Of a stretch of 64,000 nt of DNA, positions 11,553 through 54,426 are shown in pieces (the first letter of the stretch is position 1; every line of letters begins with the position of its first letter). The notes beneath the pieces are model-generated. The model searched no databases and had not been told where the DNA came from. It saw nothing but the letters and a program-made list of their open reading frames with translations. Source of the DNA: Ralstonia pickettii (GTDB taxonomy: Bacteria; Pseudomonadota; Gammaproteobacteria; Burkholderiales; Burkholderiaceae); the NCBI RefSeq assembly GCF_000607165.1, contig NZ_JFZG01000003.1:186001-250000 (forward strand), written 5' to 3'. A program made the translations under genes and the position numbers.

Positions 11553-12926
<1,374 letters not shown>

Positions 12927-12945
12927 TCGAGTGGCGCCGACCCTC

Positions 12946-12975
12946 TTGATCTGGCCGGAAAAATTCTGTTATAGT
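12946..12975 (+). promoter_or_regulatory. Predicted sigma-70 promoter of the tRNA-Ser gene
   Basis: TTGATC (12946-12951) and TATAGT (12970-12975) are separated by 18 bp, with a TG one base before the -10 (extended -10). A GC-rich discriminator (TCGCGG) follows, typical of stable-RNA promoters. The tRNA begins 31 bp after the -10. Confidence 0.6.
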
Positions 12976-13006
12976 CGCGGTTTCGCGATTCAGCGACCCA
13001 GTTACC

Positions 13007-13097
<91 letters not shown>

Positions 13098-13104
13098 CAG
13101 TAGC

Positions 13105-13140
13105 AAAAGCCCCTTGGTTTTACGACCAAGGGGCTTTTTG
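13105..13140 (+). terminator. Rho-independent terminator after tRNA-Ser
   Basis: Perfect 14-bp inverted repeat (13105-13118 and 13125-13138, 6-nt loop) ending in a T-run, starting 9 nt after the tRNA. Its A-rich left arm may also stop transcription from the acyltransferase side. Confidence 0.9.
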
Positions 13141-13187
13141 TTTGGCGCTTAGATTTCGTCTGGCGAAGAATGCGTCGATACCGGCGG

Positions 13188-14099
13188 TCACGCTGCGCGG
13201 TTTGCCGCCCGCGCCAGCATGTTTTCAATCTGCTGGTCCTTCTCTTCCCAGAGCTGGGCGAGCCAGCGGTGGAAATCGCTACGGAAGGCGGCGTCGGTGC
13301 TGTAGTCGTGCGTGCAGAAATCCGGCGGGATCGGCAGCTCGCGGATATGCACCATCACCCGGCCGGCTTGGCCGCTGGCCAGTTGCCAGAAGCTTGGTGT
13401 GCCGTCCGGGTAGGCAATGCTGATATCGAGCAGCGACTGGAACCGCCCACCCATGGCATTGAGCGTCAAGGCCAGCGCGCCAGCCTTCGGCTTGAGCAGA
13501 TGGCGATAGGGCGACGATTGCGTCCGGTGCTTTGAGGGGGTGTATCGCGTGCCTTCGGCAAAGTTCATGACGCTGGTCGGCACGTGGGCGAACTTGGCGC
13601 AGGCGCGACGCGTGGTTTCGCGGTCTTGGTTGCGCAGCTCGGGGTGTTTGCGCAGCGCCGCTTTGGAGTGCCGACGCATGAACGGGAAATCCAGCGCCCA
13701 CCAGGCCAGGCCGATGACCGGCACGTAGATCAACTGCTGCTTGAGGAAGAATTTCAGCAGCGGGATGCGCCGGTTCAACACCCGCTGCAGCACAAAGATG
13801 TCCACCCACGACCGATGGTTGCAATTGACCAAGTACCAGCCCGCATAGCGCAGGTTGTCGGCGCCTTCCACGCTCCACGGCTCGCGTTGCAGCACGCCGA
13901 TCCAGGCATTGTTGCAACCGATCCAGCACGTGGCGACCCAGTTGAGCATGGGATCGATCCGGCGGCGGACCGCCGCTACCGGCACCAGCAGCTTGAACGC
14001 CGAGAGCATGAATAGCGGTGCGCTCCAGAACAGCGTGTTCAACGCCAGCAGGATCGAGCTAAGCGTGCCCAGTACAAAGGCAGGCAGGACGCGAATCAA
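13188..14099 (-). CDS. Lysophospholipid acyltransferase family protein (YihG-like)
   Basis: A 303-residue membrane acyltransferase of the PlsC superfamily. It has a hydrophobic N-terminal segment, the catalytic HX4D box in NCNHRSWVDIFVLQ, and the substrate-binding FAEGTRYTPSKH motif. YihG-type enzymes acylate the sn-1 or sn-2 position of lysophospholipids. I chose a TTG start at 14099 because GGAGG lies 4 bp upstream and the protein then opens directly into the first membrane helix (IRVLPAFVLGTLSS). An ATG at 14195 would add 32 polar, poorly supported residues. The start is less certain than the function. Confidence 0.85.
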   Translation of the reverse strand: MIRVLPAFVLGTLSSILLALNTLFWSAPLFMLSAFKLLVPVAAVRRRIDPMLNWVATCWIGCNNAWIGVLQREPWSVEGADNLRYAGWYLVNCNHRSWVDIFVLQRVLNRRIPLLKFFLKQQLIYVPVIGLAWWALDFPFMRRHSKAALRKHPELRNQDRETTRRACAKFAHVPTSVMNFAEGTRYTPSKHRTQSSPYRHLLKPKAGALALTLNAMGGRFQSLLDISIAYPDGTPSFWQLASGQAGRVMVHIRELPIPPDFCTHDYSTDAAFRSDFHRWLAQLWEEKDQQIENMLARAANRAA

Positions 14100-14234
14100 G
14101 GCACCTCCAATGAGAGCCCGCCGGGTGACAGCGGCAGGCAGGAATCGTGATGTTAAGGATACGTGAGCGTAACTCGGATCACCCGCCCAGACCATGCGCT
14201 GCGTCAGGATTCATGCTTCGCGTCTGAGGGGCGA

Positions 14235-14268
14235 AAAAAAACCCTTGGTGTTGGCCAAGGGTTTTTTC
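14235..14268 (-). terminator. Rho-independent terminator after the porin gene
   Basis: 13-bp inverted repeat (14236-14248 and 14255-14267, 6-nt loop) with T-runs at both ends, 15 bp past the porin stop. It probably serves the porin, and it lies upstream of the acyltransferase. Confidence 0.88.
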
Positions 14269-14282
14269 TGCTCAGGTACGGC

Positions 14283-15413
14283 TCAGAACGAATGCTTCAG
14301 CCCCACACCCGCCAGCACCGTCTTGGCGCCCGGCGCCGTACCGCCCGCCACGATCGACGTCTTGAGACTTTCCAGCGGATCGGCCGTGCCCACCGCGCCC
14401 GCGTTGACGTACACGAGCTGCGCATACAGCGTGGTGCGTTTGGAGAATGCGTAGTCGTTGCTCAGCACGATCGACTTGGTGGAACTGTCGTGCGCGCTGC
14501 TTTCGTACTTGCTGTAGTAGCCGGCCAGCGTGGCAGTATTGGCGGGGCTCCACTTGTAGTCGAGCCCGGCGCCGATCGATTTGACGTCCGATACGCGTTG
14601 GCCAGTCGGCGCGTTGTTGGTGACGCCGATGTAGTTCAGCCGGCCCGTGAAGGCATCGAACGGCACGGCCACACCTGCGCTCCACAAGCGGCTGAGGGTT
14701 TCGCCCGTGCCACTGTCCGCCGTTGACTGATAGCCGAGGCCGACTGTGACCGGGCCCGTGTACGTGGCACCCAGCGAGAGTTCATTGCCGCGTTTGAAGC
14801 TGCCGGCGGTCTCGCCAAATGAATACGCAACGCCCAGCCACACGGGGCCGAAGTTGTTGGAGTACTGCAGTGCGTTGCCAATGAACACGCCCACATCGTT
14901 GCCGGGGTTGGTGCCGGCGCCCATCGCGTTGCCCGGTGCGGGCAGTTGGTTGTAGGCCCAGCCGTACAGATTCGAGAACTGCTCCTTGAAGCCGCGCGCT
15001 TCCGTGCCGATCGTGCCGAGGAGCGCCGGGCTGTACTGGCGCCCCAGCGTGATCGCGCCCCAGTTGCCGCTGAGTCCGACGTTCGCCTGCCGGCGGAACA
15101 GCTCCGAGCTGAAGCCCGGGCCGGTGGTGAGCGTGCCGGTGTCGCTGCTGAAATGTCCTTCGAGGTCGAAGTTGGCCTTCAGGCCGCTGCCCAGGTCTTC
15201 CGCTCCCTTGAGACCCCAGATGCTTGGGCTGATGCCGCCCGAATGCATTTCCGTGATGCTGCCGCCGGCTGCGCTGCGGTTTTGATACTGGAGTCCGGCA
15301 TCGACTGTGCCGTAGATCGTGACCGACGATTGTGCGATGGCGCCGCTCGCTGCGCAGCCGAGGGCGGCAGCAATGGCGGTCAGGACGCAGGGTCGAAGGC
15401 GTGTGTTCTGCAT
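14283..15413 (-). CDS. Gram-negative porin (Burkholderia-type general porin)
   Basis: A 376-residue outer-membrane beta-barrel. It has a Sec signal ending at GAIAQ-SSVTIYG; SSVTIYGTVDAGLQY is the characteristic first strand of betaproteobacterial OmpC-like porins. GNWGAITLGRQYSP follows in the body, and the last residues GVGLKHSF end in the terminal Phe needed for BAM recognition. The ATG at 15413 has GGAGAC upstream. It is probably monocistronic, with a terminator behind it and a 262-bp upstream gap. Confidence 0.94.
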   Translation of the reverse strand: MQNTRLRPCVLTAIAAALGCAASGAIAQSSVTIYGTVDAGLQYQNRSAAGGSITEMHSGGISPSIWGLKGAEDLGSGLKANFDLEGHFSSDTGTLTTGPGFSSELFRRQANVGLSGNWGAITLGRQYSPALLGTIGTEARGFKEQFSNLYGWAYNQLPAPGNAMGAGTNPGNDVGVFIGNALQYSNNFGPVWLGVAYSFGETAGSFKRGNELSLGATYTGPVTVGLGYQSTADSGTGETLSRLWSAGVAVPFDAFTGRLNYIGVTNNAPTGQRVSDVKSIGAGLDYKWSPANTATLAGYYSKYESSAHDSSTKSIVLSNDYAFSKRTTLYAQLVYVNAGAVGTADPLESLKTSIVAGGTAPGAKTVLAGVGLKHSF

Positions 15414-40985: not shown

Positions 40986-41364
40986 GGTGGCGGGGGCCGT
41001 CGCGGCAAGTCGCGTCGTTGCGCAGCGACAACTGCACGGTCGCGTGGAATGTGGCTTCGAATGATCATGGTGCAGCCCCGATCGCTTTGTCAAACCACGG
41101 CGTGCGCGGGTGATCTCAAACAATTGTTTATGTCCGAGGAGGATAGACGGCCATCCAAAATGTGGTTTGCCGTGTACCCACGCCATCGGCGATACTTCAC
41201 CTTCGGACACATTGTCTCGGTATGCCTTGCGGGGCCTGCGTTTGCGGGCGGCAGCCGTGAAGAAAAACAGCGGTTCCGGACGGCGTCATCACAGGCGCCG
41301 ATCTTCAGTGCCGGCGCAGATCGGCCTAATTGATGCACATAGTTGCATAGCGGAGTGCCAGTTC
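40986..41364. promoter_or_regulatory. Intergenic region upstream of pelA
   Basis: 379 bp between divergent genes, expected to hold the pel promoter. Visible elements are a perfect 12-bp palindrome AAACAATTGTTT (41118-41129) and an inverted repeat ATGCA-CATAGT-TGCAT (41333-41348) that ends 16 bp before the pelA ATG. No sigma-54 match and no clear coding frame. Confidence 0.5.
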
Positions 41365-44307
41365 ATGTGGGTTCTCAGCCGTTTACAGCGGCGCACCGGG
41401 GGGAAACGGGGGAATACGGCGGGGACGATCGCACGGTTGGCTGGGCTTTTTGTCGCAGCCGCCGTATCGATGCCTTGTGTGACGCTTGCTCAACAAGCGC
41501 CTGCCACCACCGGCTCCGGTGCGTCAGGGGTAACAGCTTCAGTTCCGGTTAACGCGCCGAACATCGCGTGGTTCTACGGCGACAAGCCGCCCGTGGCGCA
41601 GTTGCGCGCCTTCGACGCGGTCGTTGTGGAGCCAGACCACGGGTTCGATCCATCGCAGTTCAAGACGCCCAAGACGCAGTGGTACGCCTACGTGAGCGTG
41701 GGCGAGGTCACGCCCCAGCGCAGTTGGTACAAGGACTTGCCCAAGGCCTGGCTGTTGGGCCGCAATGCGGCGTGGGCCTCGCGCGTGGTGGATCAGGCCC
41801 AGCCCGAGTGGCCGGCGTTTTATGTCGATCACGTCATCAAGCCGCTGTGGGAGAAGGGCTACCGTGGCTTCTTTCTCGATACGCTCGACTCGTATCAGTT
41901 GGTGGCCAAGGACGACGCCTCGCGAGCGGCGCAGGAAGCCGGCATGGTGCGTGTGATTCGCGCGATCAAGGCGCGCTATCCGGACGCCAAGCTGATCTTC
42001 AACCGCGGGTTTGAGATCCTGCCGCAGGTGCACGACCAGGCGTATGCGGTGGCGTTTGAATCGCTGTATCGCGGCTGGGACCAGGGCAGCAAGCAGTACA
42101 AGGAAGTGAGCGACGCGGACCGCGAATGGCTGATGGGCCATGTACGCAAGATTCGCGACGATTACCACCTGCCCGTCATCGCCATCGATTACTGCCCGCC
42201 CACCGACCGTGCCTGCGCACGCGAAACGGCCAAACGTATCAAGGCGCAGGGCGTGGTGCCCTACGTGACCGATCCAGACCTGTCGACCATTGGCGTGGGG
42301 CGCATCGAGGTGTTGCCGCGCAAGGTGTTGATCCTGCAGGACCGCGACCCGCGTACCACCATTGACACCAGCGAGGGCGTGCGCTTCGTGGCCACGCCAC
42401 TCAACTTTCTCGGCTACGACGTCGAGTACGCCGACATCAACAAGCCGCTGCCCGCTTCAGTACCACCCGACAGCTACGCCGGCGTGGTGGTGTGGGTGAA
42501 CACCAGTCCGGTCAAGCAGGTGGCGGCGCTGTCGTCGTGGGTGCGGCAACGTATTCATGACGGCGTGCACATCGCCTTCCTGAACCAGTTTGGCCTGCCG
42601 GTGGATGGCAGCATGGCCGACATGTTCAAGCTGCACCTTGTGCGTGGGCGTGCCAGCGGGCCGCTGTCGGTGGTGTCGCAAGACAAGATGATGGGTTTTG
42701 AGATGGCGCCGCAACCGGAGCGCCGCGAAGCCCAGCCGATTCAGGTGAGCGCGAACGGGCAGTCGCTGCTGCGGCTGAAGTCGGGCAACTTTGAGTTTGA
42801 TGCCGCTGCCATTACCGATTGGGGCGGCTACGTACTGAATCCGTACGCGGTGTTCTCCATGGACACCGTTGAGCAGGCGCGTTGGGTTGTCCAGCCGATC
42901 GAGTTCCTGCGCCGCGCACTGGCGCTGCCAGACATGCCGATCCCCGACGTGACCTCTGAAAACGGCCGCCGACTCATGCTCGTGCATGTGGATGGCGACG
43001 GCTTTGCCTCGCGCGCCGAGTTTCCCGGCCCCGAATATTCCGGCGAGGTGCTGCTGCAGGACGTGTGGGAGAAGTACCGCATCCCGACAACGCTGTCGGT
43101 CATCGAGGGCGAGGTGGGCGCAAGCGGCCTTTACCCCAAGCTGACGCCGCGTCTGGAAACGATTGCGCGCCAGATGTTCGCGCTGCCGTACGTTGAACTG
43201 GGCACGCATACCTATTCGCACCCGTTCGATTGGAGCCGCACCGTGCCCGGCGCGGCCGCTGATCGGGCCAAGGAAGGCCCGGGTGCGGACAAGGGCGGTG
43301 GCGACACCGCATTCACGCTGTCCATTCCGGGCTACAAGTTCAGCCTCGACCGCGAGATAGCGGGCTCCATCAACTACATCAACGAGCGCCTGGCCCCGCC
43401 CGGCAAGCGCGTGAAGCTCCTGCAGTGGTCGGGCGACTGCCAGCCGCCCGAGATTGCCGTGCGCATGGCCTGGGACGCGGGCGTTCTCAATCTGAACGGC
43501 GGCGATACCACCATCACACGCAGCTCGCCATCGTGGACGGAGATTGCACCGCTGGGCATCGACAAGGGCCCAGGGGCTTACCAAGTGTTTGCGCCAAACC
43601 AGAACGAGAACGTCTACACAAACGATTGGACCGGGCCGTTCTATGGTTTCGATCGCCTGATTGAAACGCTGCAGTTGACGGACACTCCGTATCGCTTCAA
43701 GCCGATCAACATCTACTACCACATGTATTCGGGCACCAAGCTTGCGTCACTCAAGGCCTTGAAGAAGGTCTATGACTACGCGTTGTCGCAGCCCGTGTTC
43801 CCGATCTATTCGACCGAATATGTGGTCAAGGTGCTGGACTTCCGCAACATGGCCATCGCCCGAGAAGTCGGTGACGGCAACACCTGGGTGGTGCGCGGTG
43901 ATGGCGATCTGCGCGAACTGCGCTGGATGGCGCGCGGTACGCCGCGCCTGGCGGATGCGCAGGGGGTGGTTGGGTATGACAAGGCGGCCGGCGGTATCTA
44001 TATCCATCTTGATGACGGCGCCGCACGCTTTACGCTCGCACCTGAGGCGGAGTCGGCCAAGCCAGCGTACATTGCAGAAGCCGCTGCCTTTGTACGCAAT
44101 TTCGCACGAAACGGTAATGAGTTGAGTTTCGAGGCGGGCGGCTATTACAAGCCGTTTGTTCGTCTGGCCAACGCAGGTGCTTGCCGCGTGAAGGTCAACG
44201 GCAACCCAGCGCGCACGGCCCGCGCACAAGACAACACCGTGCGCGTTGATCTGACAGGAGCTGCTGCGCAAACCGTGACCTACCAACGTATCGATGTGGT
44301 CTGCTGA
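41365..44307 (+). CDS. pelA: Pel polysaccharide hydrolase/deacetylase PelA
   Basis: A 980-residue periplasmic protein (about 950 in Pseudomonas). After a signal-like N-terminus come a TIM-barrel glycoside hydrolase domain (IAWFYGDKPPVAQLRAFDAVVVEPDHG to VVPYVTDPDL), a middle domain and a CE4-like deacetylase (LMLVHVDGDGFASRAEFPG; metal ligands in GTHTYSHPFDW), then a C-terminal beta domain. PelA deacetylates and cleaves Pel, a cationic GalN/GalNAc polymer. CGGAG lies 9 bp before the ATG at 41365. It overlaps pelB by 14 bp. Confidence 0.93.
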   Translation: MWVLSRLQRRTGGKRGNTAGTIARLAGLFVAAAVSMPCVTLAQQAPATTGSGASGVTASVPVNAPNIAWFYGDKPPVAQLRAFDAVVVEPDHGFDPSQFKTPKTQWYAYVSVGEVTPQRSWYKDLPKAWLLGRNAAWASRVVDQAQPEWPAFYVDHVIKPLWEKGYRGFFLDTLDSYQLVAKDDASRAAQEAGMVRVIRAIKARYPDAKLIFNRGFEILPQVHDQAYAVAFESLYRGWDQGSKQYKEVSDADREWLMGHVRKIRDDYHLPVIAIDYCPPTDRACARETAKRIKAQGVVPYVTDPDLSTIGVGRIEVLPRKVLILQDRDPRTTIDTSEGVRFVATPLNFLGYDVEYADINKPLPASVPPDSYAGVVVWVNTSPVKQVAALSSWVRQRIHDGVHIAFLNQFGLPVDGSMADMFKLHLVRGRASGPLSVVSQDKMMGFEMAPQPERREAQPIQVSANGQSLLRLKSGNFEFDAAAITDWGGYVLNPYAVFSMDTVEQARWVVQPIEFLRRALALPDMPIPDVTSENGRRLMLVHVDGDGFASRAEFPGPEYSGEVLLQDVWEKYRIPTTLSVIEGEVGASGLYPKLTPRLETIARQMFALPYVELGTHTYSHPFDWSRTVPGAAADRAKEGPGADKGGGDTAFTLSIPGYKFSLDREIAGSINYINERLAPPGKRVKLLQWSGDCQPPEIAVRMAWDAGVLNLNGGDTTITRSSPSWTEIAPLGIDKGPGAYQVFAPNQNENVYTNDWTGPFYGFDRLIETLQLTDTPYRFKPINIYYHMYSGTKLASLKALKKVYDYALSQPVFPIYSTEYVVKVLDFRNMAIAREVGDGNTWVVRGDGDLRELRWMARGTPRLADAQGVVGYDKAAGGIYIHLDDGAARFTLAPEAESAKPAYIAEAAAFVRNFARNGNELSFEAGGYYKPFVRLANAGACRVKVNGNPARTARAQDNTVRVDLTGAAAQTVTYQRIDVVC

Positions 44308-47300
44308 CCTGACTCCGCGTGAACGGCTGCTGCCAGCCTGGCTGATCGGTACCCTGGGTGCGCTGATCGGGCTGGCGCTCGCCTTGATGTTTCCCCGCGA
44401 ACGTTTGGAGGCTCGCCTGCTGGAGGGCGGTAAGGTCGATGCGCTGTCGGTGGCCTACCTGGAAGCCTGGCTGCGCGTGCGCCCGAACGACGGCGAGTTC
44501 TTGAGCGTGCTGGCTGCCCAGTACGTGCGCACGGGCCGCCTGGCAGAAGCCGAAGCCATGGTCGCTCGCATGCGCGCGCTGCGCGACAAGACGCTCGACC
44601 GTGAAGCGCTGCTGCTTGATATCGCCATCCGAGAGCAACGCGCCTACGCGCTGCAACCGAAGGATCCGCAGCGCGCCGCCATGCTGGTCGACCTGCGTGG
44701 TCTGCTCAAGCAGGCGCTGGACTATCGCTGGACTGCGGCCGAGCTGGAGATTCTCGCCGCCAAGTCGCGTGCCTTGGATCAGGGCGCGATTGCCATCCAG
44801 TTCTATCAACGCCTGGCTAAACAGGACGTGGCGCGCGCCGCGCAATGGCAGGCGCGTACTGCTGAGATTGCGCTGGGCGTGGGCGAATACCGCGCCGCTG
44901 CCGCCGCCAACTTTGCCGCGCAGGCCACCGCCAAGTCGCTCGACGAACAGCGCCGCTACTTCATCGCCGGGTTGAAGGCCCTGCAGGCTGGCAACCTGCT
45001 CGACGACGCCATGACAGAAGCGCAACGCCGTGTTGGCCCGCTGATCGACGATACCGAAACGCTGCGCTTTCTCACGCGCCTGGCGATGGCATGTAACCGG
45101 CCGGATCTGGCAGACCAATACGCGCGGCGCCTGCTGCGGCTGTCGTGGCATCAGGCGGGCGAGGGCATTGCCTTGGCCTCCGGTGTCGCCCGGCATGACT
45201 GGGCATTCGCCGGCCGGCCGGAACCGCTGCCAAGCCCTGCAGACCTGGTGTTCATGGATGGCCCAGAAGGCCTGGCGCGTCGGCAGCGCCACACTGCGCG
45301 CATTCGCCCGGTGGCGGATAAGCAGAGCAAGGCTGACGATGCGGCTTCGTCCTCACAACCGTCGGGCGCACAGGCCATCGCACGCGGGATCGCCCCGTTC
45401 AATGCGGAAGACTACGATCTCGCATTCCAGGTTTTCATGGGCAGCGGCAATCTGAACGACGCCATGCGCGTGGCCGAGGCCGCCGTGCGTCAACGCCCCG
45501 ATCTGAAAATCTGGACCGAACGTGCCGCGCAGGTGGCCGAGTGGAACCGCCAACCGATGGCGGCGTTGAACTACTGGCTCGCGTACGCGCAATCCACGGG
45601 GGACGATGCGGCCTGGCAGCATGTGCTGCGTCTGGCGCCTGCGCTCCACGAAGACCACGCCTATCTGGCCGGGCTGCGCTACCAGGCAAGCCGCACCCCG
45701 GGCGACATGAAGTTGCTCGACCAGGTCATCGCGGCGTACGAGCGTCTGGGCGAACCCGTGGAAGGGCTGGCGTATCTGAACAGCATCGCGCACGGGTCGC
45801 ATCGTCAGGTGGTGCTGGAGCGCTATGCCAATCTGGCCGAGCGCGCCGGCAAAGACGATCAGGCTTACGACACCTACGTGCGTCTGCAAAAGGAGTTCGG
45901 CCCCAACGCGCAGTACGCGCTCAAGCTGGCGAACATCCTGTACGTGCGCGGGCAGTTTGCGCAGGCGCTTGCCGCCATGCAGGCTGCAGACAAGGCGGCC
46001 TTGCCAACCGATGACCTGTATTGGCGGACTTTCGCCCAGCTCGCGCGCCTGAACCAGCGTGATGATCTGTCGCGTGAGGCGTATCGGCAGTTGCTGATCG
46101 GCGGCAAGGCTGAGCCAGACGATCTGACAACGATGATCGATTTCTACGACGCCAGCCCCATCGATGCTGGCCGTCTGGCCGAACTCGCTTTCCGCAAAGA
46201 TGGCACGATGGTTCACCTGCAGCAGGCCATCTACTACTACACGCGTGCGCGCGCCTTCCGCCGCATCGACGGGTTGCTGGCCTCGCTCACACCAGAACAG
46301 CGCAAAGCGGCCGAGCAATCCGCCGGCGTGCTGGGCGCGCGGGCCGAGTATTTCCGCCAGAGCGGCCAGTGGGATGCCGCCATGCGTGACCTGCGGCGCG
46401 CAGTCTCGCTGCCGGATGCGGGCAGCGATGTGAAGGCGGCCTTCCTGTGGGGCCTGCTGGATTCCGGACAGAACGCCGAGCTCAAGCGCGCATTGGCGCT
46501 TTGGCGTAGCGAGGCCGAAAACGATTCCGCGTACTGGGGTGCCTACGCTGCCGCCGGCCTGCAGTTGTTTGACGCCAACCTGGCGCTGCGCTTCCTGGGC
46601 CGCCAGGGCAAGTCGATGCAGACCGATCCGCTCTGGTTGCTGGCCTATGCCGATGCACGCGAAATGGCCGGTCAGGCCGATGCTGCCTGGGCGCTGCGCC
46701 GCGAGGCGTGGTGGTTGCTGTGGCGCGCTGAAGATACGCCAGGCAGCGACAAGACCAAGCTGCCAATTGGCCGCCGTGTAGGCACGCGCGTCACGGTGGG
46801 GGATGGCGATGCGGCGCCGCTGGAAGAAGATGCGCGCACCGAATTGCGTGCCCGGCGCGTCTCACTGGCTCAAACATTCGGGTCTGGCGACTTGGCGCAG
46901 CGTCTGTTGATCGAGCTGCTGCGCGATGATCGCCGCGCGACGAAGCAGGCCCGCGAAGGTGGCCGCTCGGCGATGGCTAAGTCCGAGCTGGGCGATATCG
47001 ACACGTTGCCGCCGGAGCCGCCGCAGACCCCCACCGACAAACGCAAGCAGGCCCGCGTGAGCGATCAGCTCGTTTCCGCCGTGGCCAAGGAAGCGGCGCT
47101 GGGCTGGGCGCTCTCGCGGGAGGCGAATGATCTGGCGCGCGCGTGGTTGCTGCAGCAGTACACGCGCCGCATGACGCGCCCGGCCTATGCCGAGATCTCC
47201 ATTGCCCTGGCCGAGCACGATCTGCAGACGCTCAACCGGCTGCTTGACGATACGCCTGACCGCATTCCGCTCTACAACCGCATCGATGCCAACGTGATGA

Positions 47301-48325
47301 CGGACCGCCTCGGTGAGGCGCAGCGTCTGTCGTTTGAAGGGCTGACCACCGCACCCGATGACGAGCAACTGCACGAACGTGTGCAGGAGACGCTGCTGAC
47401 CAATGCACAGGCGCTGGAGCCGCGCGAGACGTGGTTCAAGCAGGCGCCGCTGACGTACTTCGAGAGCAGCGCTGCCGCCGGTATCCGCCTGACCGATCAC
47501 TACAGCATGCTCGTGCGCGCCACCCAGCGGAACCAGCGCTCGACCGACGATACGCAGTTGACCGGCGTGCCTGCGCAGGATCGGCAGGTGGATTGGATCT
47601 CGCAGTACCAGACGCAGAACACGCAGTGGAAGGGCACGGTGGGTTGGCGCCAGGGGCTGGGCTCGCTTTACGCCTTCCGGCTGGACGGCCTGCTGGGGCA
47701 GGTCGGGCCGGTGGGCACGGAGCTTTCGATCGGTCGCAACCAGCCGGCCAATGAAACGCCGCAACTGCGTGTGGGCGGCGTGAAGGATCTGTTCTCGATT
47801 GGCAACAACTGGCGCCTGACGCAAAACGAGTACGTGCGCGCCCGCGTGGAAGGCGACCGCTTCTACGGGCAGGACCGCTCGTTCCTGGGCAGCGGCATGG
47901 TGTTCGATGGCGAAATCGGGCACCGCTTCCGGGTGGAATATCCGGACTACACGATCCGCGTGGTTGGTACCGTCGCACGCTACAACGCGACGGGCACGGT
48001 CAGCCCATTGATGGCTCGCCTGCTTCCTTCGGGTGCCGCGCCGGACGTTGACCAGATCATGCCGCGCTCGTTCAACCAGTTCGGCATGCTGTTTGGTTTC
48101 GGCACGGATTATCTGGACCGCTACACGCGCGCCTGGCGGCCCTTTATGGATGCGGGCATGCTGCATGACAACCGCGAAGGGTGGGGCGTGCAGGCCCAGC
48201 TTGGCGTGGCAGGCAGCGTGTTTGGCAACGACCATCTGGCGCTGTACATCGAGCACCAGTCGATTACGCGCGCGGGGACATCGCCGCTGACAGAGATCGG
48301 CCTGCGCTACCGCTGGCTCTACTGA
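44294..48325 (+). CDS. pelB: Pel outer-membrane export protein PelB
   Basis: A 1343-residue protein with one N-terminal membrane helix (LPAWLIGTLGALIGLALALMF), a long run of TPR-type helical repeats (about residues 45-1000) and a C-terminal 16-strand barrel that ends GLRYRWLY. The TPRs bind PelA and gather it at the exit pore. The protein is about 150 residues longer than Pseudomonas PelB, and part of this is charged linker with SerSerGln/Lys stretches near 335-355 and 890-925. It overlaps pelA by 14 bp. Confidence 0.92.
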   Translation: MWSADLTPRERLLPAWLIGTLGALIGLALALMFPRERLEARLLEGGKVDALSVAYLEAWLRVRPNDGEFLSVLAAQYVRTGRLAEAEAMVARMRALRDKTLDREALLLDIAIREQRAYALQPKDPQRAAMLVDLRGLLKQALDYRWTAAELEILAAKSRALDQGAIAIQFYQRLAKQDVARAAQWQARTAEIALGVGEYRAAAAANFAAQATAKSLDEQRRYFIAGLKALQAGNLLDDAMTEAQRRVGPLIDDTETLRFLTRLAMACNRPDLADQYARRLLRLSWHQAGEGIALASGVARHDWAFAGRPEPLPSPADLVFMDGPEGLARRQRHTARIRPVADKQSKADDAASSSQPSGAQAIARGIAPFNAEDYDLAFQVFMGSGNLNDAMRVAEAAVRQRPDLKIWTERAAQVAEWNRQPMAALNYWLAYAQSTGDDAAWQHVLRLAPALHEDHAYLAGLRYQASRTPGDMKLLDQVIAAYERLGEPVEGLAYLNSIAHGSHRQVVLERYANLAERAGKDDQAYDTYVRLQKEFGPNAQYALKLANILYVRGQFAQALAAMQAADKAALPTDDLYWRTFAQLARLNQRDDLSREAYRQLLIGGKAEPDDLTTMIDFYDASPIDAGRLAELAFRKDGTMVHLQQAIYYYTRARAFRRIDGLLASLTPEQRKAAEQSAGVLGARAEYFRQSGQWDAAMRDLRRAVSLPDAGSDVKAAFLWGLLDSGQNAELKRALALWRSEAENDSAYWGAYAAAGLQLFDANLALRFLGRQGKSMQTDPLWLLAYADAREMAGQADAAWALRREAWWLLWRAEDTPGSDKTKLPIGRRVGTRVTVGDGDAAPLEEDARTELRARRVSLAQTFGSGDLAQRLLIELLRDDRRATKQAREGGRSAMAKSELGDIDTLPPEPPQTPTDKRKQARVSDQLVSAVAKEAALGWALSREANDLARAWLLQQYTRRMTRPAYAEISIALAEHDLQTLNRLLDDTPDRIPLYNRIDANVMTDRLGEAQRLSFEGLTTAPDDEQLHERVQETLLTNAQALEPRETWFKQAPLTYFESSAAAGIRLTDHYSMLVRATQRNQRSTDDTQLTGVPAQDRQVDWISQYQTQNTQWKGTVGWRQGLGSLYAFRLDGLLGQVGPVGTELSIGRNQPANETPQLRVGGVKDLFSIGNNWRLTQNEYVRARVEGDRFYGQDRSFLGSGMVFDGEIGHRFRVEYPDYTIRVVGTVARYNATGTVSPLMARLLPSGAAPDVDQIMPRSFNQFGMLFGFGTDYLDRYTRAWRPFMDAGMLHDNREGWGVQAQLGVAGSVFGNDHLALYIEHQSITRAGTSPLTEIGLRYRWLY

Positions 48326-48394
48326 CAAGCAAGAAAAAAGCAACGGGGAAAGAACGAGATGAAGCACACAACGGAAGACTCCAGGGAGAACGCG

Positions 48395-48955
48395 ATGACA
48401 CCCTTGATCAACAAGATGCATGCCGGCCGCCGGCGCTGGCTGGCCGTGGCAGCGGGCGTTGGTGCGGCGCTTGTGTTGTCCGCCTGCGCGGTGGTCGACA
48501 GCGCGCGTGCGCCGGCAACCAGCGCGTCTGATGCGTGGGTGGTCCTGCCCATCGCCAACTACACCGAAACGCCGCAGGCCGGCCTGCGTGCGGAGACGAT
48601 TGCGGCCAGCATCCTCAAGGCGCGCGGCTTCTCCAACCTCAAGCAGTAACCAGCCAACCTGAACAGCGAGTCGCTGTTCGAGCCCGCCGAGCGCGAGGCC
48701 GTGGCGCGCGCACTGGATTGGGCACGTGGCGAGAAGGCCCGCTATGCCCTGACCGGCGCCGTGGATGAATGGCGCTACAAGGTCGGTGTGGATGGCGAGC
48801 CCGCGGTCGGCATCACGCTGCAAGTGATTGACGTGCAGACCGGCAACGTGATCTGGAGCGCGGCCGGTAGCCGCACCGGCTGGAGCCGCGATGCCGTGTC
48901 GGCGGTGGCGCAGAAGCTGCTGCGCGAGCTGCTCTCGCCGCTGGGCCGGGGCTGA
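48395..48955 (+). pseudogene. pelC: pelC with internal stop codon
   Basis: PelC is the outer-membrane lipoprotein ring that funnels Pel into PelB. The frame opens at 48395 (AGGGAG 6 bp upstream) with a lipobox ALVLSAC (Cys31) and runs WVVLPIANYTETPQAGLRAETIAASILKARGFSNLKQ, then meets TAA at 48647-48649 (codon 85). The same frame continues with PelC sequence (PANLNSESLFEPAERE...ITLQVIDVQTGNVIWSA) to a TGA at 48953-48955, where pelD begins. So one nonsense change, with no frameshift, splits an otherwise intact 186-codon gene. An earlier ATG at 48359 is possible. Sequencing error is the main alternative. Confidence 0.85.
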
Positions 48956-50430
48956 TGAAGACCGAGTCGGCAGGTTCCGCTCAATCGGCCGGCCGCGCCG
49001 CCGCCGATGGGCGCGGCCAGGGTGGAAGAACTGAGCGCCGGCGCAACGCGCAGGGGATTGGCGCGTCGACTTGGTATGGGCGCATGATTGCGCCCGCCGT
49101 GTCCAGCCCGAGCGCTGTGCTGGAAACGCTGGGTACGGTGGTGGTGGCCATTGGCGTCGTCTGGCTGTTCGCGCCGGACAACCCGCTGCTGCTCGGCTAC
49201 GGCTTTCCGTGGATCTGGCTGGTGCCGCTCATCCTGGCGCTGCGCTACGGCACGCTGCTCGGCGCGCTTGCCGCGCTGGTGGTGCTGGGCGCCTGGGCCG
49301 TGTTCTACGGACAGACGGCCCAGGCCGGCAGCTTCCCGCGCATGTACTTCCTGGGCGGGCTGATGCTTGTGTTGGTCGGCGGGCAGTACGGCGATATCTG
49401 GGGCGCGCGGTTGTCGCGTGCCCGCACCGTCAACGGTTACCTGAACGACCGGCTGGCGGCGCTCACCAAAAACCACTTCCTGCTGCGCCTCTCGCACGAG
49501 CGCCTGGAAAACGACCTGCTGGCCAAGCCGACCACGCTGCGCGACACGCTCACGCAGTTGCGCAATATCGCGCTGGCCGCACGTGAACACGGCCTGGGTG
49601 ACAACCAGCCTGACGTGGCGCAACTGCCCGGCGCCGAGCCCTTCCTGCAATGGACGGCGCAGGCCTGCCAACTGGAAGTGGCGGCCATGGTGCGCGTGAC
49701 GGGCAACCGCGTCGACACCGAACCGGTGGCCCGCGTGGGCACGCCGTTCGACATCGTTGCCGATGATCCGTTGATCCGCCATTGCATCGACACCCACACG
49801 CTGGGCCACCCGCAGGCGCCCGAGCTGCGGAATGTGAACAACCCCGAAGACGGCTCGCGCTACGTGGCGTGCGCGCCGGTGCTCTCGGGGGCGGATGAGC
49901 TGATCGGCCTGGTGGTCGTACATCAGATGCCGTTCCTCTCGCTGTCGTACGAGAACCTGCAGTTCCTGCTCGTGCTGCTTGGCTACTACGCCGACGGCGT
50001 GCGCCATCTCACCGTCAGCTCCGAGATCCTGGATCTCGTGCCCGACGCGCCGTACGAGTTCGCGCTCGATCTCGGCCGGCTGGCACGCCTGCATCGCGAT
50101 ACCGGTATCGATTCGTCGGTGGTGGCGCTCATCTTCGATCAGGACGAGACCAGCGATGCGCTGTTCGAGAGCGTGGTGCGCAGCCGCCGTGCGCTCGACG
50201 TTGTCTGGCAGTCAAGCGGCAAGAACCGCCGCGCCATCATCACGCTGATGCCGCTGTCGGGCGCGGGTGCCGTGTCGGCCTATCTGGTGCGCATTGAAGA
50301 CAGCCTGCGCGCGCAGTTTGGCGTGGATTTCGAGGGCGGGCACATCAGCGTGCAGACGTTGCATGTGACCGGCGAGCATCCGGGCGAAGCGCTGCAGCGC
50401 TTCCTCGCGCGCTGCCATCTCGATGCATAG
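48955..50430 (+). CDS. pelD: Cyclic-di-GMP receptor PelD
   Basis: A 491-residue inner-membrane protein. Four helices (about 50-150), a GAF domain (about 170-310) and a degenerate GGDEF domain (about 325-480) that has lost catalysis but keeps the inhibitory-site motif RxxD (Arg412-Ala-Leu-Asp415), through which cyclic-di-GMP switches on Pel synthesis post-translationally. The ATG overlaps the pelC stop (TGATG). Family identity is clear from order and motif. Confidence 0.92.
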   Translation: MKTESAGSAQSAGRAAADGRGQGGRTERRRNAQGIGASTWYGRMIAPAVSSPSAVLETLGTVVVAIGVVWLFAPDNPLLLGYGFPWIWLVPLILALRYGTLLGALAALVVLGAWAVFYGQTAQAGSFPRMYFLGGLMLVLVGGQYGDIWGARLSRARTVNGYLNDRLAALTKNHFLLRLSHERLENDLLAKPTTLRDTLTQLRNIALAAREHGLGDNQPDVAQLPGAEPFLQWTAQACQLEVAAMVRVTGNRVDTEPVARVGTPFDIVADDPLIRHCIDTHTLGHPQAPELRNVNNPEDGSRYVACAPVLSGADELIGLVVVHQMPFLSLSYENLQFLLVLLGYYADGVRHLTVSSEILDLVPDAPYEFALDLGRLARLHRDTGIDSSVVALIFDQDETSDALFESVVRSRRALDVVWQSSGKNRRAIITLMPLSGAGAVSAYLVRIEDSLRAQFGVDFEGGHISVQTLHVTGEHPGEALQRFLARCHLDA

Positions 50431-50459: not shown

Positions 50460-51446
50460 ATGTTTAAGCTCACGCTCGGCGGCATCTCGGCGCAGATCGC
50501 GGCAGTGGTGATGGCACTGCATGCTGGCAACAGCCTTGCGCTGCTGCTGTCGTGCCTGATGCTGCAGGGCACCGCCGCCGCACTGATCGGCCTGGCTGCG
50601 TGGCGCTTGCTGCCGCGCCGTTATCGCGTGCCGTTCGTGTGGACGTATGGCTACCTGACGGCGCTGTGCTTTTTTGTGCCGGTGGCGGGCGTCCTGCTGG
50701 TGCTGGGCAGCCTGCTGCTCGCCAAGCTGTTTCCCAAGCCCGAAGACGACAAGGACATCGCCGATGTTGGGCTGCCGGTGTTCGTGGCGCATTTGATCTC
50801 ACGCGTGACGCATGGCGGCGGAGCGCGGCTGCGTGCGCAACTCAGCAATGAGCGCGCACCGGTACAAAGCCGCATGACCGCACTGGTGGCCATGCAGTCG
50901 ATGCCCACGCGCACTGCCAGCCCCGTGCTGCGCGACCTGCTGGCCGATCCGGTGGACGATATCCGCCTGCTGGCCTACGGCATGCTCGACAACGCCGAGA
51001 AGGTGCTCACGCAAAAGATCCTGGCCGAGCTGCCGCGCCTGGAAGAAGCCACCACGCCCGAGGCGCGCTACGACATCAACAAGCGCCTGGCCGACCTGTA
51101 TTGGGAACTGATCTACCAGAACCTCGTGCAGGGCGACGTGTACCGCTACACCGCCGAGCAGGTCGAGCGCTACGCCAGCGCCGCGCTCGACATCCAGCCC
51201 GACAACGCCGCGCTGTGGTACATGCGCGGCCGCCTTGCACTGTCGCGCCGCGAGCCCGATGTGGCCGAGTCCCATCTGCGCCGCGCTGAATCCCTCGGCT
51301 TCCAGCGTGACCGCCTGCTGCCCCCGCTGGCCGAAGCCTGCTACCTGCGCCGCGACTATGCCGGCGCGCGTGCGGCGCTGGCGCAGTTCTCCAGCCGTTC
51401 TCCGCTGCCGTTGCTGCGCCCGCTGTTGCGCTACTGGACATCATGA
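50460..51446 (+). CDS. pelE: Pel biosynthesis inner-membrane protein PelE
   Basis: A 328-residue protein, matching the length of Pseudomonas PelE. Two to three N-terminal membrane helices (LTLGGISAQIAAVVMALHAG, FVWTYGYLTALCFFVPVAGV) are followed by helical TPR-like repeats (YASAALDIQPDNAALWYMRGRLALSRREPDVAESHLRRAE). It links PelD and PelF to PelG in the synthase complex. The ATG at 50460 is used, with a TTG two codons earlier as alternative. It overlaps pelF by 4 bp. Confidence 0.9.
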   Translation: MFKLTLGGISAQIAAVVMALHAGNSLALLLSCLMLQGTAAALIGLAAWRLLPRRYRVPFVWTYGYLTALCFFVPVAGVLLVLGSLLLAKLFPKPEDDKDIADVGLPVFVAHLISRVTHGGGARLRAQLSNERAPVQSRMTALVAMQSMPTRTASPVLRDLLADPVDDIRLLAYGMLDNAEKVLTQKILAELPRLEEATTPEARYDINKRLADLYWELIYQNLVQGDVYRYTAEQVERYASAALDIQPDNAALWYMRGRLALSRREPDVAESHLRRAESLGFQRDRLLPPLAEACYLRRDYAGARAALAQFSSRSPLPLLRPLLRYWTS

Positions 51447-53056
51447 GCAACGACCACTTTCCGCGCGCCCAGTCCGCCGACGTTGCGCTGCTGCTCGAAG
51501 GGACCTTTCCCTACGTGAGCGGCGGGGTGTCGAGCTGGGTCAACCAGATGATCCGGGCGTTTCCGGACATCCGCTTTGCCATCGTCTTCATCGGCAGCCG
51601 CCGTGAGGATTACGGCAAGCCCGTCTACGCCATTCCCGACAACGTGGTGCACCTGGAGTGCCACTACCTGTACGACTTTCCGCCGCCGCCACTGGTGCAG
51701 GCCAGCGGCGGCGATGCCGCAGCGTTCGAGCGCTCGCGCAAGCTGCACGATGCGCTGCGCAATCCGGCAAACAAGGAAGAGACGGCCGAGTTGATCCGCG
51801 CCTCGATTGCCGACCTGCGCGACGATGGCCCGCTGGCCGAGGAACAGTTCCTCTACAGCCACCGCGCGTGGGACATGATGACGGACTACTACCGGCGCTA
51901 CTGCACCGACCCGTCGTTCACGGACTACTTCTGGACCGTGCGCATCATGCACAAGCCGCTGTGGCAGCTCGTGCGCATTGCCGAAAACCTCATCCCGGTG
52001 AAGGTGTTCCACACCATCTCGACCGGCTATGCAGGCTTCCTGGGCGCGCTGCTGCGCTACAGGCGAGGGCGTCCGCTGCTGGTGTCCGAGCACGGTATCT
52101 ACACCAAGGAACGGAAGATCGACCTGTTCCAGAGCCAGTGGATTCGTGACAACCGCAGCATCTTCGAGAAGGACATTGCGCAGATCAGCTACTTCCGCGA
52201 TCTGTGGGTGCGCTTTTTTGAAACCATGGGCCGGGTCTGCTATGACGCGGCTGAAGACATCGTCGCGCTGTATGAAGGTAATCGGCAGCGCCAGGTCATT
52301 GACGGCGCGCCGGCCGAGAAGACGCGCAGCATCCCCAACGGCATCAACCTGCCGCGCCTGGCTGCGTTGCGCGAGAAGCGGCAAGCCAGCGTACCGCGCG
52401 TGATGTGCCTGATCGGCCGGGTGGTGCCGATCAAAGACGTGAAGACGTTCATTCGCGCCATGCTGACCATCACGCGCGAGATGCCCGATGCGGAAGGCTG
52501 GATTGCCGGCCCGGAAGACGAAGATCCGGAATACGCGCAGGAATGCCACAGCCTGGCTGAAAGCCTCGGCCTGGGCGACCGCATCAAGTTCCTGGGCTTC
52601 CAGAAGATCGACGACATCCTGCCGAAAGTGGGCGTGCTGGTGCTGAGTTCCATCAGTGAGGCGCTGCCGCTGGTGGTGCTGGAAGGGTTTGCCGCGGGCG
52701 TGCCGTCAGTCACGACGGATGTGGGTTCGTGCCGGCAACTGCTGTTCGGCCTGGAGGGCGAAGACGCGGCACTGGGCGCGGCTGGCGCCGTGGTGCGCAT
52801 TGCCGACCCGGCTGCCCTGGCTGCCGAAGTGCTCACGCTGCTGCGCGATGAAACGCGCTGGCATGCGGCCCAGGCTGCTGGCATTGCCCGCGTCGAGCGC
52901 TATTACACGCAAGAGATGATGGTCGGCAGCTACCGCGAGCTGTATACGCGCCTGGAGACGTTGCCCGATCTGAGTACCGAGCACGGTGCGAAGGCCGCCG
53001 CCGCGGCCTGCCCGCACCACGCCCAGCAGAACAAGCCCCATGAGGGAGCCCGCTGA
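51443..53056 (+). CDS. pelF: Pel glycosyltransferase PelF (GT4)
   Basis: A 537-residue cytoplasmic GT-B enzyme that polymerises UDP-GalNAc. The start VALLLEGTFPYVSGGVSSWVNQMIRAFPD is characteristic of PelF; later VLSEHGIYTKERKIDL, IGRVVPIKDVKTFIRAM and the donor-site ISEALPLVVLEGFAAGVPSVTTDVG appear as in GT4 enzymes. A His/Ala-rich tail of about 25 residues is extra. It overlaps pelE (ATGA) and pelG (TGATG). Confidence 0.95.
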   Translation: MSNDHFPRAQSADVALLLEGTFPYVSGGVSSWVNQMIRAFPDIRFAIVFIGSRREDYGKPVYAIPDNVVHLECHYLYDFPPPPLVQASGGDAAAFERSRKLHDALRNPANKEETAELIRASIADLRDDGPLAEEQFLYSHRAWDMMTDYYRRYCTDPSFTDYFWTVRIMHKPLWQLVRIAENLIPVKVFHTISTGYAGFLGALLRYRRGRPLLVSEHGIYTKERKIDLFQSQWIRDNRSIFEKDIAQISYFRDLWVRFFETMGRVCYDAAEDIVALYEGNRQRQVIDGAPAEKTRSIPNGINLPRLAALREKRQASVPRVMCLIGRVVPIKDVKTFIRAMLTITREMPDAEGWIAGPEDEDPEYAQECHSLAESLGLGDRIKFLGFQKIDDILPKVGVLVLSSISEALPLVVLEGFAAGVPSVTTDVGSCRQLLFGLEGEDAALGAAGAVVRIADPAALAAEVLTLLRDETRWHAAQAAGIARVERYYTQEMMVGSYRELYTRLETLPDLSTEHGAKAAAAACPHHAQQNKPHEGAR

Positions 53057-54426
53057 TGGCCGGCATTGGTTTTGAGCTGCGCAAGATGCTCAAGCGCGAC
53101 AGCCTGCTCGGGCTGATGCGCGCGTACACCTACGCCGGCATCATCAGCTCCGGGCCGTGGATTCTCTCCATCGTCGGGATTCTGCTGATCGGTATCCTGA
53201 GCCTGCCGTTCGTGATTCCCGGCTCGCTCATCACGCAGTTCCAGGTGTCGGTCACCTACCTGATTGCGGTCAGCCTGATCCTCACGGGGCCGCTGCAGCT
53301 TGCCTTCACGCGCTTTACGTCCGACCGCCTGTTCGAGAAGCGCGATGACCTGATCCTGCCCAACTACCACGCCGTGTCGCTCGTGATGACGCTGGTCGCG
53401 GGCGGGCTTGGGCTGCTCGTCATCGTGTTTGCGTTTCCGCAGCAGTCAGCCATCTACCGGCTGCTGATGCTGGCCGGTTTCGTGGTCATGGCCAACATCT
53501 GGATCGCAGTGATCTTCTTGTCGGGCATGAAGCAGTACAAGGCGATCGTGTGGATCTTTCTGGTCGGCTACACGCTCACCGTGCTGCTGGCGCTGCTGTT
53601 TAACCGGTTCGGGTTGGAAGGGCTGCTGCTGGGGTTCGTGACGGGGCAGCTCTTCTTGCTGATCGGCATGGCCGCGCTCATCTACCGCAACTTCAGCGGT
53701 CGGCGCTTCCTGTCGTTCGAGGTGTTCGACAAGCGGTTTGCGTATCCGTCGCTCATGTTGATCGGGCTGCTCTACAACCTCGGCATCTGGCTCGACAAGT
53801 TCATGTTCTGGTACGCACCGGGCACGGGGCAGCAGGTGATCGGGCCGCTGCACGCCTCGGTCATCTACGACATTCCGGTGTTCCTGGCGTACCTCGGCAT
53901 CATCCCCGGCATGGCCGTGTTCCTGGTTCGTATCGAGACGGACTTTGTCGAGTACTACGACGCCTTCTATGACGCCGTGCGTGGCGGGGCATCGCTTGAG
54001 CACATCGAGGACATGCGCAACACGATGGTGCAGACCATTCGCGCCGGCCTGTACGAGATCGTGAAGATTCAGGCGATGGCCGCGCTGGTCCTGTTTGCCG
54101 TGGGCGCTGCGGTGCTGCGGGCGTTGCAGATTTCCGAGCTGTATCTGCCGCTGCTGTATGTCGACACCATTGCCGCCAGCTTGCAGGTGGTGTTTCTGGG
54201 CGTGGTGAATATCTTCTTCTACCTGGACCGGCGCCGCGTTGTGCTGGCGTTGACGGCCGCGTTCGTTGCGCTCAACGGCGTGTTGACGTGGATTACGTTG
54301 CAGCTCGGGCCGGCCTGGTACGGATACGGATTTGCCGTGTCACTGCTCTTGGTCGTGATGGCGAGCCTGGTGATCCTGGACCGGAAGCTGGATCGGCTGG
54401 AGTACGAGACGTTTATGTTGCAGTAA
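53056..54426 (+). CDS. pelG: Pel Wzx/MATE-like inner-membrane transporter PelG
   Basis: A 456-residue integral membrane protein with about 12 helices, the same length as Pseudomonas PelG. The start MAGIGFELRKMLKRDSLLGLMRAYTYAGIISSGPWILSI is the family signature. With PelD and PelE it moves the growing chain across the inner membrane. Last gene of the operon; a terminator follows. Confidence 0.95.
   Translation: MAGIGFELRKMLKRDSLLGLMRAYTYAGIISSGPWILSIVGILLIGILSLPFVIPGSLITQFQVSVTYLIAVSLILTGPLQLAFTRFTSDRLFEKRDDLILPNYHAVSLVMTLVAGGLGLLVIVFAFPQQSAIYRLLMLAGFVVMANIWIAVIFLSGMKQYKAIVWIFLVGYTLTVLLALLFNRFGLEGLLLGFVTGQLFLLIGMAALIYRNFSGRRFLSFEVFDKRFAYPSLMLIGLLYNLGIWLDKFMFWYAPGTGQQVIGPLHASVIYDIPVFLAYLGIIPGMAVFLVRIETDFVEYYDAFYDAVRGGASLEHIEDMRNTMVQTIRAGLYEIVKIQAMAALVLFAVGAAVLRALQISELYLPLLYVDTIAASLQVVFLGVVNIFFYLDRRRVVLALTAAFVALNGVLTWITLQLGPAWYGYGFAVSLLLVVMASLVILDRKLDRLEYETFMLQ

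What the first reader, a model, noticed from the sequence alone, without database searches (positions are those of the whole stretch)
48395..48955. Nonsense codon inside pelC of an otherwise intact pel operon
Seen: the pelC frame reads through good PelC sequence, hits TAA at 48647-48649, and resumes PelC sequence in the same frame to the pelD start. Known: PelC is an outer-membrane lipoprotein ring required for Pel export. Inference: Pel secretion is lost or needs readthrough or re-initiation (GTG at 48701, without a lipoprotein signal). The stop may record loss of biofilm matrix in this strain.
Basis: partly seen in the sequence, partly recalled or inferred. Interest (0 to 1): 0.78.

Follow-up and report, generated by a model that had tools for sequence, protein, structure and literature searches.

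The report
Stop codon disrupting Ralstonia pelC
One Ralstonia genome carries a single stop codon halfway through a gene needed to export the biofilm sugar Pel, most likely a recent, ordinary loss-of-function mutation.

Summary
A TAA at 48647-48649 (codon 85 from ATG 48395) splits an otherwise open pelC frame in a complete pelABCDEFG operon. The window lies in a 5.75 Mb Ralstonia genome, G000. In 14 of 14 other genus members where pelC was found it is open across this codon; the 15th has no pelC match and no close PelF. Of 93 PelC-like matches in 299 family genomes, only this one has an internal stop. The piece after the stop is 100% identical in protein to G001 and G015, and its changes private to G000 are 5 silent and 0 replacement: the stop is recent, or an error that only reads can rule out. 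It removes the Asp and Trp that published work ties to PelC function. It also ends translation 305 nt before pelD, whose start overlaps the natural pelC stop (TGATG). Best reading: a null allele of this strain, perhaps polar on pelD, with Pel export lost. Total matrix loss does not follow, since a PgaC-type synthase gene is present. Nonsense mutations in pel genes of isolates are already published: a new member of a known kind.

The parts
41365..44307 (+). pelA (start inferred at ATG 41365)
   Evidence: GH114 Pfam match; five relatives have stops just upstream of this ATG and none of the 11 aligned relatives has one downstream, G007 being covered only from query residue 290
44294..48325 (+). 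pelB, outer-membrane barrel with TPR scaffold, open frame
   Evidence: PF24604 and PF13429
48395..48646 (+). pelC, 5' piece: signal peptide, lipobox (Cys codon 48485-48487) and about 54 residues of mature PelC; alternative ATG at 48359
   Evidence: PDB PelC matches with this piece alone; the lipobox Cys is invariant in 14 of 14 PelCs that I chose to align; SD-like energy -8.2 at 48395 against -5.7 at 48359
48647..48649 (+). premature TAA stop codon
   Evidence: no stop here in 14 of 14 other genus genomes that have pelC; 1 of 93 family matches has an internal stop, this one
48650..48955 (+). pelC, 3' piece (101 codons plus the natural TGA), same frame, untranslated if the stop is obeyed
   Evidence: PDB PelC matches with this piece alone; 100% identical in protein to G001 and G015 over 101 residues and to G012 over 100; 5 silent / 0 replacement private changes
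48701..48703 (+).
   Evidence: SD-like energy -4.1; 35 of 88 internal start codons in the pelB frame are as good or better; lies behind the signal peptide and lipobox
48791..48793 (+). Asp codon equivalent to D-loop Asp-119 of P. aeruginosa PelC, behind the stop
   Evidence: mapped through the 9h80_C match 14-98 to 85-169, taken as gapless; role from PMC12141448 passages
48881..48883 (+). Trp codon equivalent to membrane-embedded Trp-149 of P. aeruginosa PelC, behind the stop
   Evidence: same mapping; role from PMC12141448 passages
48953..48957 (+). TGATG overlap of the natural pelC stop and the pelD start (probable translational coupling)
   Evidence: present in the window and in 11 of 11 relatives' loci read (in L041 three bases further on)
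48955..50430 (+). pelD, open frame
   Evidence: PF16963
50454..51446 (+). pelE, open frame (start codon uncertain)
   Evidence: position between pelD and pelF; aligned without stops in 12 of 12 relatives' loci; only weak, below-cut-off family hits
51443..53056 (+). pelF, open frame
   Evidence: NF038011 PelF equivalog, 863 bits against a cut-off of 100
53056..54426 (+). pelG, open frame
   Evidence: PF16933 PelG

Best explanation
A recent nonsense mutation, confined to this strain or species as far as sampled, has inactivated pelC. Translation stops after 84 codons and leaves a lipoprotein stub without the Asp loop and the Trp that build the PelC ring on PelB, so Pel should not be exported. 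Ribosomes no longer reach the overlapping pelD start (TGATG, 305 nt downstream), so PelD, and through polarity perhaps PelEFG, is probably reduced as well. Shown here: the stop, its uniqueness in the genomes searched, the open neighbouring genes, the conserved junction and the lack of decay in the 3' piece. Inferred: loss of export, the polar effect, and that the base call is real.
For: Stop read directly. 14 of 14 other genus genomes with pelC are open here. 1 of 93 family matches has an internal stop. The truncated product's cluster in the protein database (4 member sequences) is on one contig, of the length of the window's contig (514,636 bases). The 3' piece has 5 silent and 0 replacement private changes against three near relatives (4 and 0 against each of two larger sets); the chance of 5 of 5 silent without selection is 0.0015-0.0032. 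45 of the 64 invariant columns of 14 chosen PelCs lie behind the stop (my count). P. aeruginosa PelC is called essential for Pel transport and its Trp essential for assembly (PMC12141448, abstract and passages); all seven pel genes are said to be needed for Pel (PMC10269871, abstract and passages). TGATG junction in 11 of 11 relatives' loci.
Against: No reads, no second isolate of the species and no phenotype were available. A piece still under full constraint is also what a sequencing or assembly error, or a still-functional split gene, would show. pelD has some SD-like pairing of its own (-5.0; 23 of 88 internal start codons in the pelB frame do as well or better), so the polar effect is uncertain.
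Confidence: 0.72

Rival explanations
1. The stop is a base-calling, assembly or culture artefact (for example a mutant that arose in the laboratory stock), and the wild strain has a working pelC.
For: The 3' piece shows no sign of decay; the truncated product is seen on a single contig; no held relative shares the stop.
Against: Only 1 of 147 matched coding-like genes of this genome, over about 232 kb aligned to G001, is interrupted, so the assembly is not error-rich there; completeness 99.99%, contamination 0.3%; the frame is kept, whereas many assembly errors are indels (recalled).
Confidence: 0.2
2. The split gene still works through TAA readthrough or re-initiation at a downstream start.
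For: Full constraint on the 3' piece; eight in-frame GTG codons exist behind the stop.
Against: A re-initiated product has no signal peptide or lipobox; GTG 48701 has an ordinary SD-like score (35 of 88 internal start codons as good or better); 74 of 254 coding-like ORFs end in TAA; none of the 92 other family matches has an internal stop. Suppressor tRNAs were not searched.
Confidence: 0.04
3. The stop is one case of repeated, tolerated Pel loss in Ralstonia, where Pel is often dispensable because another matrix sugar is made (not exclusive of the best explanation).
For: G007 has an element with IS66-family genes inside pelB; G009 has no pelC match and its best PelF-like match is 29% identical; G000 has a PgaC-type synthase over the family cut-off.
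Against: Only 2 of 12 operons looked at across all seven genes are interrupted (G000 and G007; ten are not; for the relatives, for G000; G007 pelA only partly covered). The constraint on pelC shows that Pel is usually kept. PgaC was looked for in G000 only.
Confidence: 0.3

Closest known systems
Pseudomonas aeruginosa clinical isolate PA121, pelA nonsense E537* (PMC12690498, abstract and passages seen)
   Same: A single nonsense codon in one pel gene of an isolate; that study associates it with impaired biofilm and did not find the variant in NCBI complete genomes.
   Different: pelA, not pelC; a phenotype was measured there, none here.
Streptococcus intermedius AP2, pelD premature stop (PMC12345266, passages seen)
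   Same: A single SNP creates a stop in a pel gene; the strain makes no Pel.
   Different: Gram-positive operon, pelD, and a sister isolate (AP1, isogenic except for three SNPs) with intact pelD was in hand.
Solved PelC chains (PDB 9h80, 5t10, 5t11, 5t0z) and PelC as described in PMC12141448 (abstract and passages)
   Same: Both pieces of the window gene match; lipobox, Asp loop and Trp codons are all present in the DNA.
   Different: Here the frame is cut before the Asp loop and the Trp. The calls do not name the organisms of these entries; that 9h80 is the P. aeruginosa complex of the paper is my inference.

Membership tests
pelABCDEFG operon (Gram-negative Pel system) | pelA hydrolase, PelB barrel, PelD GGDEF protein, PelF glycosyltransferase and PelG in order | tested here: met
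   GH114, PF24604, PF16963, NF038011 and PF16933 matches in order
PelC lipoprotein | signal peptide with lipobox Cys | tested here: met
   LSAC with Cys at codon 31 of the 5' piece (read by eye); Cys invariant in 14 of 14 chosen PelCs
PelC lipoprotein | one continuous reading frame giving the whole domain | tested here: not met
   TAA at 48647-48649
PelC lipoprotein | Asp loop and conserved Trp | tested here: inconclusive
   both codons are present (48791-48793, 48881-48883) but lie behind the stop
Pseudogene / loss-of-function allele | disrupting change absent from intact orthologues | tested here: met
   14 of 14 other genus genomes with pelC open; 92 of 93 family matches without an internal stop
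Pseudogene / loss-of-function allele | relaxed constraint after the disruption | tested here: not met
   5 silent / 0 replacement private changes in the 3' piece: no decay yet, so recent, not real, or still used
Pseudogene / loss-of-function allele | loss of product and phenotype | not testable with these tools
   needs the strain

The most novel reading that the evidence does not exclude
Pel is being lost repeatedly and independently within Ralstonia (a nonsense codon in pelC here, an IS66-type insertion in pelB in G007, no pel operon found in G009), with the two in-operon breaks both hitting the outer-membrane export end while the synthesis genes stay open, and with another matrix sugar such as PNAG remaining (its synthase was looked for in G000 only).
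Probability: 0.25. Interest if true: 0.4.

Novelty: new member of a known kind. Interest (0 to 1): 0.2.

Why it matters
If the base is real, this strain should be a natural Pel-export mutant with open synthesis genes, useful for asking what happens to Pel made but not exported and whether another sugar suffices for Ralstonia biofilms. It is also a caution that annotation by operon presence would count this genome as Pel-positive. Beyond that it is a single null allele of a well-known kind.

Tried and rejected
Rejected: a second pelC copy (one match in the genome with the 3' piece; one with the PelC alignment); general assembly decay (the looser filters were dropped as noisy in both directions, without checking each hit); a stop shared by the genus; pelA breaks in relatives (the stops of five relatives fall upstream of the inferred pelA start). 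The last part of the script failed and was not rerun; one search had already printed the insertion ends. A plasmid-collection search found 11 records, all at 60-80% identity.

Paper searches, of which I saw the listings only unless said otherwise: Ralstonia pickettii + pel operon (2 of 2 listed); PelC + Pel polysaccharide + lipoprotein (20 of 31 listed); Ralstonia + pelC + biofilm (20 of 60 listed); pel operon + premature stop codon + biofilm (5 of 5); pel operon + Ralstonia + exopolysaccharide (9 of 9); loss-of-function and parallel-evolution terms (10 of 15 listed); pel operon + nonsense mutation + Pel polysaccharide (12 of 84 listed). Passages were seen of PMC12141448, PMC3697988, PMC12345266, PMC6480722, PMC13352818, PMC12690498 and PMC10269871; no paper was read whole. 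PMC6480722 reports pelA-pelG in two R. insidiosa isolates, with amino-acid differences in PelC but no stop in the passages seen. Nothing in these listings and passages describes a Ralstonia pelC nonsense allele; the unlisted papers and the full texts were not checked. PMC5358405 (the PelC paper) is not held, so I know it only through PMC12141448 and PMC10269871. Not tested: suppressor tRNAs, raw reads, other isolates of the species, Rho-dependent polarity.

Full report
What is there. The window holds a complete pelABCDEFG operon on the + strand, and its pelC frame contains a TAA at 48647-48649. Counted from ATG 48395 this is codon 85; from the alternative ATG 48359 it is codon 97. The 48395 start has the better Shine-Dalgarno-like pairing (-8.2 against -5.7 kcal/mol). 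The frame then runs open for 101 codons to a TGA at 48953-48955, which overlaps the pelD ATG. Families found: GH114 in PelA, PelB barrel and TPR, PelD GGDEF, PelF equivalog and PelG. PelE was assigned by position and alignment. Neither pelC piece matches a Pfam family at E 0.001, but each on its own matches solved PelC chains.

Where it is. The window is G000:C3:186001-250000 of a 5,746,538-base genome in 38 contigs, 99.99% complete. The genus is therefore Ralstonia; the species name was not given.

Is the stop shared? In the genus search 15 of 16 genomes match the 3' piece, and 14 of those 15 have an open frame of 201 aa or more; only G000 has 101. In the relatives exactly three bases separate the regions matching the two pieces, with no stop: 17 of 17 loci, three genomes being represented twice, so 14 distinct genomes. 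In a family-wide sample of 299 genomes, 91 have a PelC-like match at E 1e-10, 93 matches in all; one match has an internal stop, G000 (I did not check the operon around each match). In a database of 5.8 billion proteins the truncated product's cluster (4 member sequences) is on one contig, of the same length as the window's contig; the four other hits lie on contigs of 0.9-2.2 kb and may be cut ends.

How old is it? Against G001, G015 and G014 the 3' piece has 5 silent and 0 replacement changes private to G000; the two larger reference sets give 4 and 0 each. The 5' piece gives 0 silent and 1 replacement, then 0 and 0 twice. With no selection, 5 of 5 silent has probability 0.0015-0.0032 depending on the transition bias. 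Selection thus kept the 3' piece for most of the time since the species split. The stop is recent, or it is not real, or the piece is still made; this test alone cannot choose between these.

Is it an error? I compared the first 400 kb of G000:C3 with G001:C9; about 232 kb align (summed). Under a filter for coding-like codon positions, 1 of 147 matched genes is interrupted in G000 (pelC) and 4 of 146 in the reverse direction. Looser filters tried first gave 32 of 169 and 29 of 171 and 22 of 263 and 26 of 256; these look mostly like spurious antisense frames or start extensions, and I dropped them for that reason without checking each. The assembly therefore looks clean here, but reads were not available, so I leave 0.2 for an artefact.

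What it does. PelC is a lipoprotein that forms a twelve-fold ring on PelB; it is called essential for Pel transport, and its conserved Trp essential for assembly (PMC12141448, abstract and passages). All seven pel genes are said to be needed for Pel in P. aeruginosa (PMC10269871, abstract and passages). Through the 9h80 match, taken as gapless, Asp-119 and Trp-149 of that paper fall on codons 48791-48793 and 48881-48883; Gly-117 and Gly-120 also land on Gly, which supports the register. Both key residues lie behind the stop, as do 45 of the 64 invariant columns of 14 PelCs that I chose to align (G001 and 13 of the 120 listed hits; my count). What is left is a lipoprotein stub of about 54 residues.

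Rescue. GTG 48701 would give a product without signal peptide or lipobox. Its SD-like energy of -4.1 is equalled or beaten by 35 of 88 internal start codons in the pelB frame; of the seven later in-frame GTGs the best reaches -5.9, and each would give a still shorter piece. 74 of 254 coding-like ORFs in the fetched 400 kb end in TAA, which speaks against general TAA suppression. Suppressor tRNAs were not searched.

Polarity. The natural pelC stop and pelD start overlap as TGATG in the window and in 11 of 11 relatives' loci read. The premature stop leaves 305 untranslated bases before pelD, so coupling should fail and pelD translation should drop. This is inference; pelD has modest pairing of its own (-5.0; 23 of 88 sites as good or better).

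Context in the genus. One other break turned up: in G007 pelB is split by 2.56 kb carrying IS66-family transposase genes, flanked by a 9-base direct repeat. G009 has no pelC match, and its best PelF-like match is 29% identical, so it probably lacks pel. Of 12 operons looked at across all seven genes (G000, and 11 relatives, G007 pelA only in part), 2 are interrupted; for G002, G004 and G013 only part of the operon was seen. G000 has a PgaC-type synthase over the family cut-off (595 bits against 422; in the control 1 of 14 genomes passes the cut-off) and no cellulose synthase over its cut-off, so another matrix sugar may remain; the rest of a pga operon was not looked for.

Verdict. Nonsense mutations in pel genes of isolates, with loss of Pel or impaired biofilm, are published (PMC12690498, pelA; PMC12345266, pelD; passages seen in both). 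This is a new member of a known kind, of low to moderate interest.

Noticed in passing
L033 (G007:C1:2196000-2214000) about 12663-15226: An element with IS66-family genes (HTH_Tnp_1, TnpB_IS66 and DDE_Tnp_IS66 matches) is inserted in pelB, flanked by a 9-base direct repeat: an independent break of the same operon in another Ralstonia species.
   Followed up: partly
G009 (same genus): No pelC match and no close PelF (best 29% identity): pel is probably absent from this genome.
   Followed up: partly
G000:C9:8349-9566: PgaC-type synthase over the NCBIfam cut-off, a possible second matrix sugar of this strain.
   Followed up: partly
window 41110-41365: The mechanical pelA ORF runs about 85 codons upstream of the likely start; five relatives have stops just before ATG 41365, so the start is best placed there.
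   Followed up: yes
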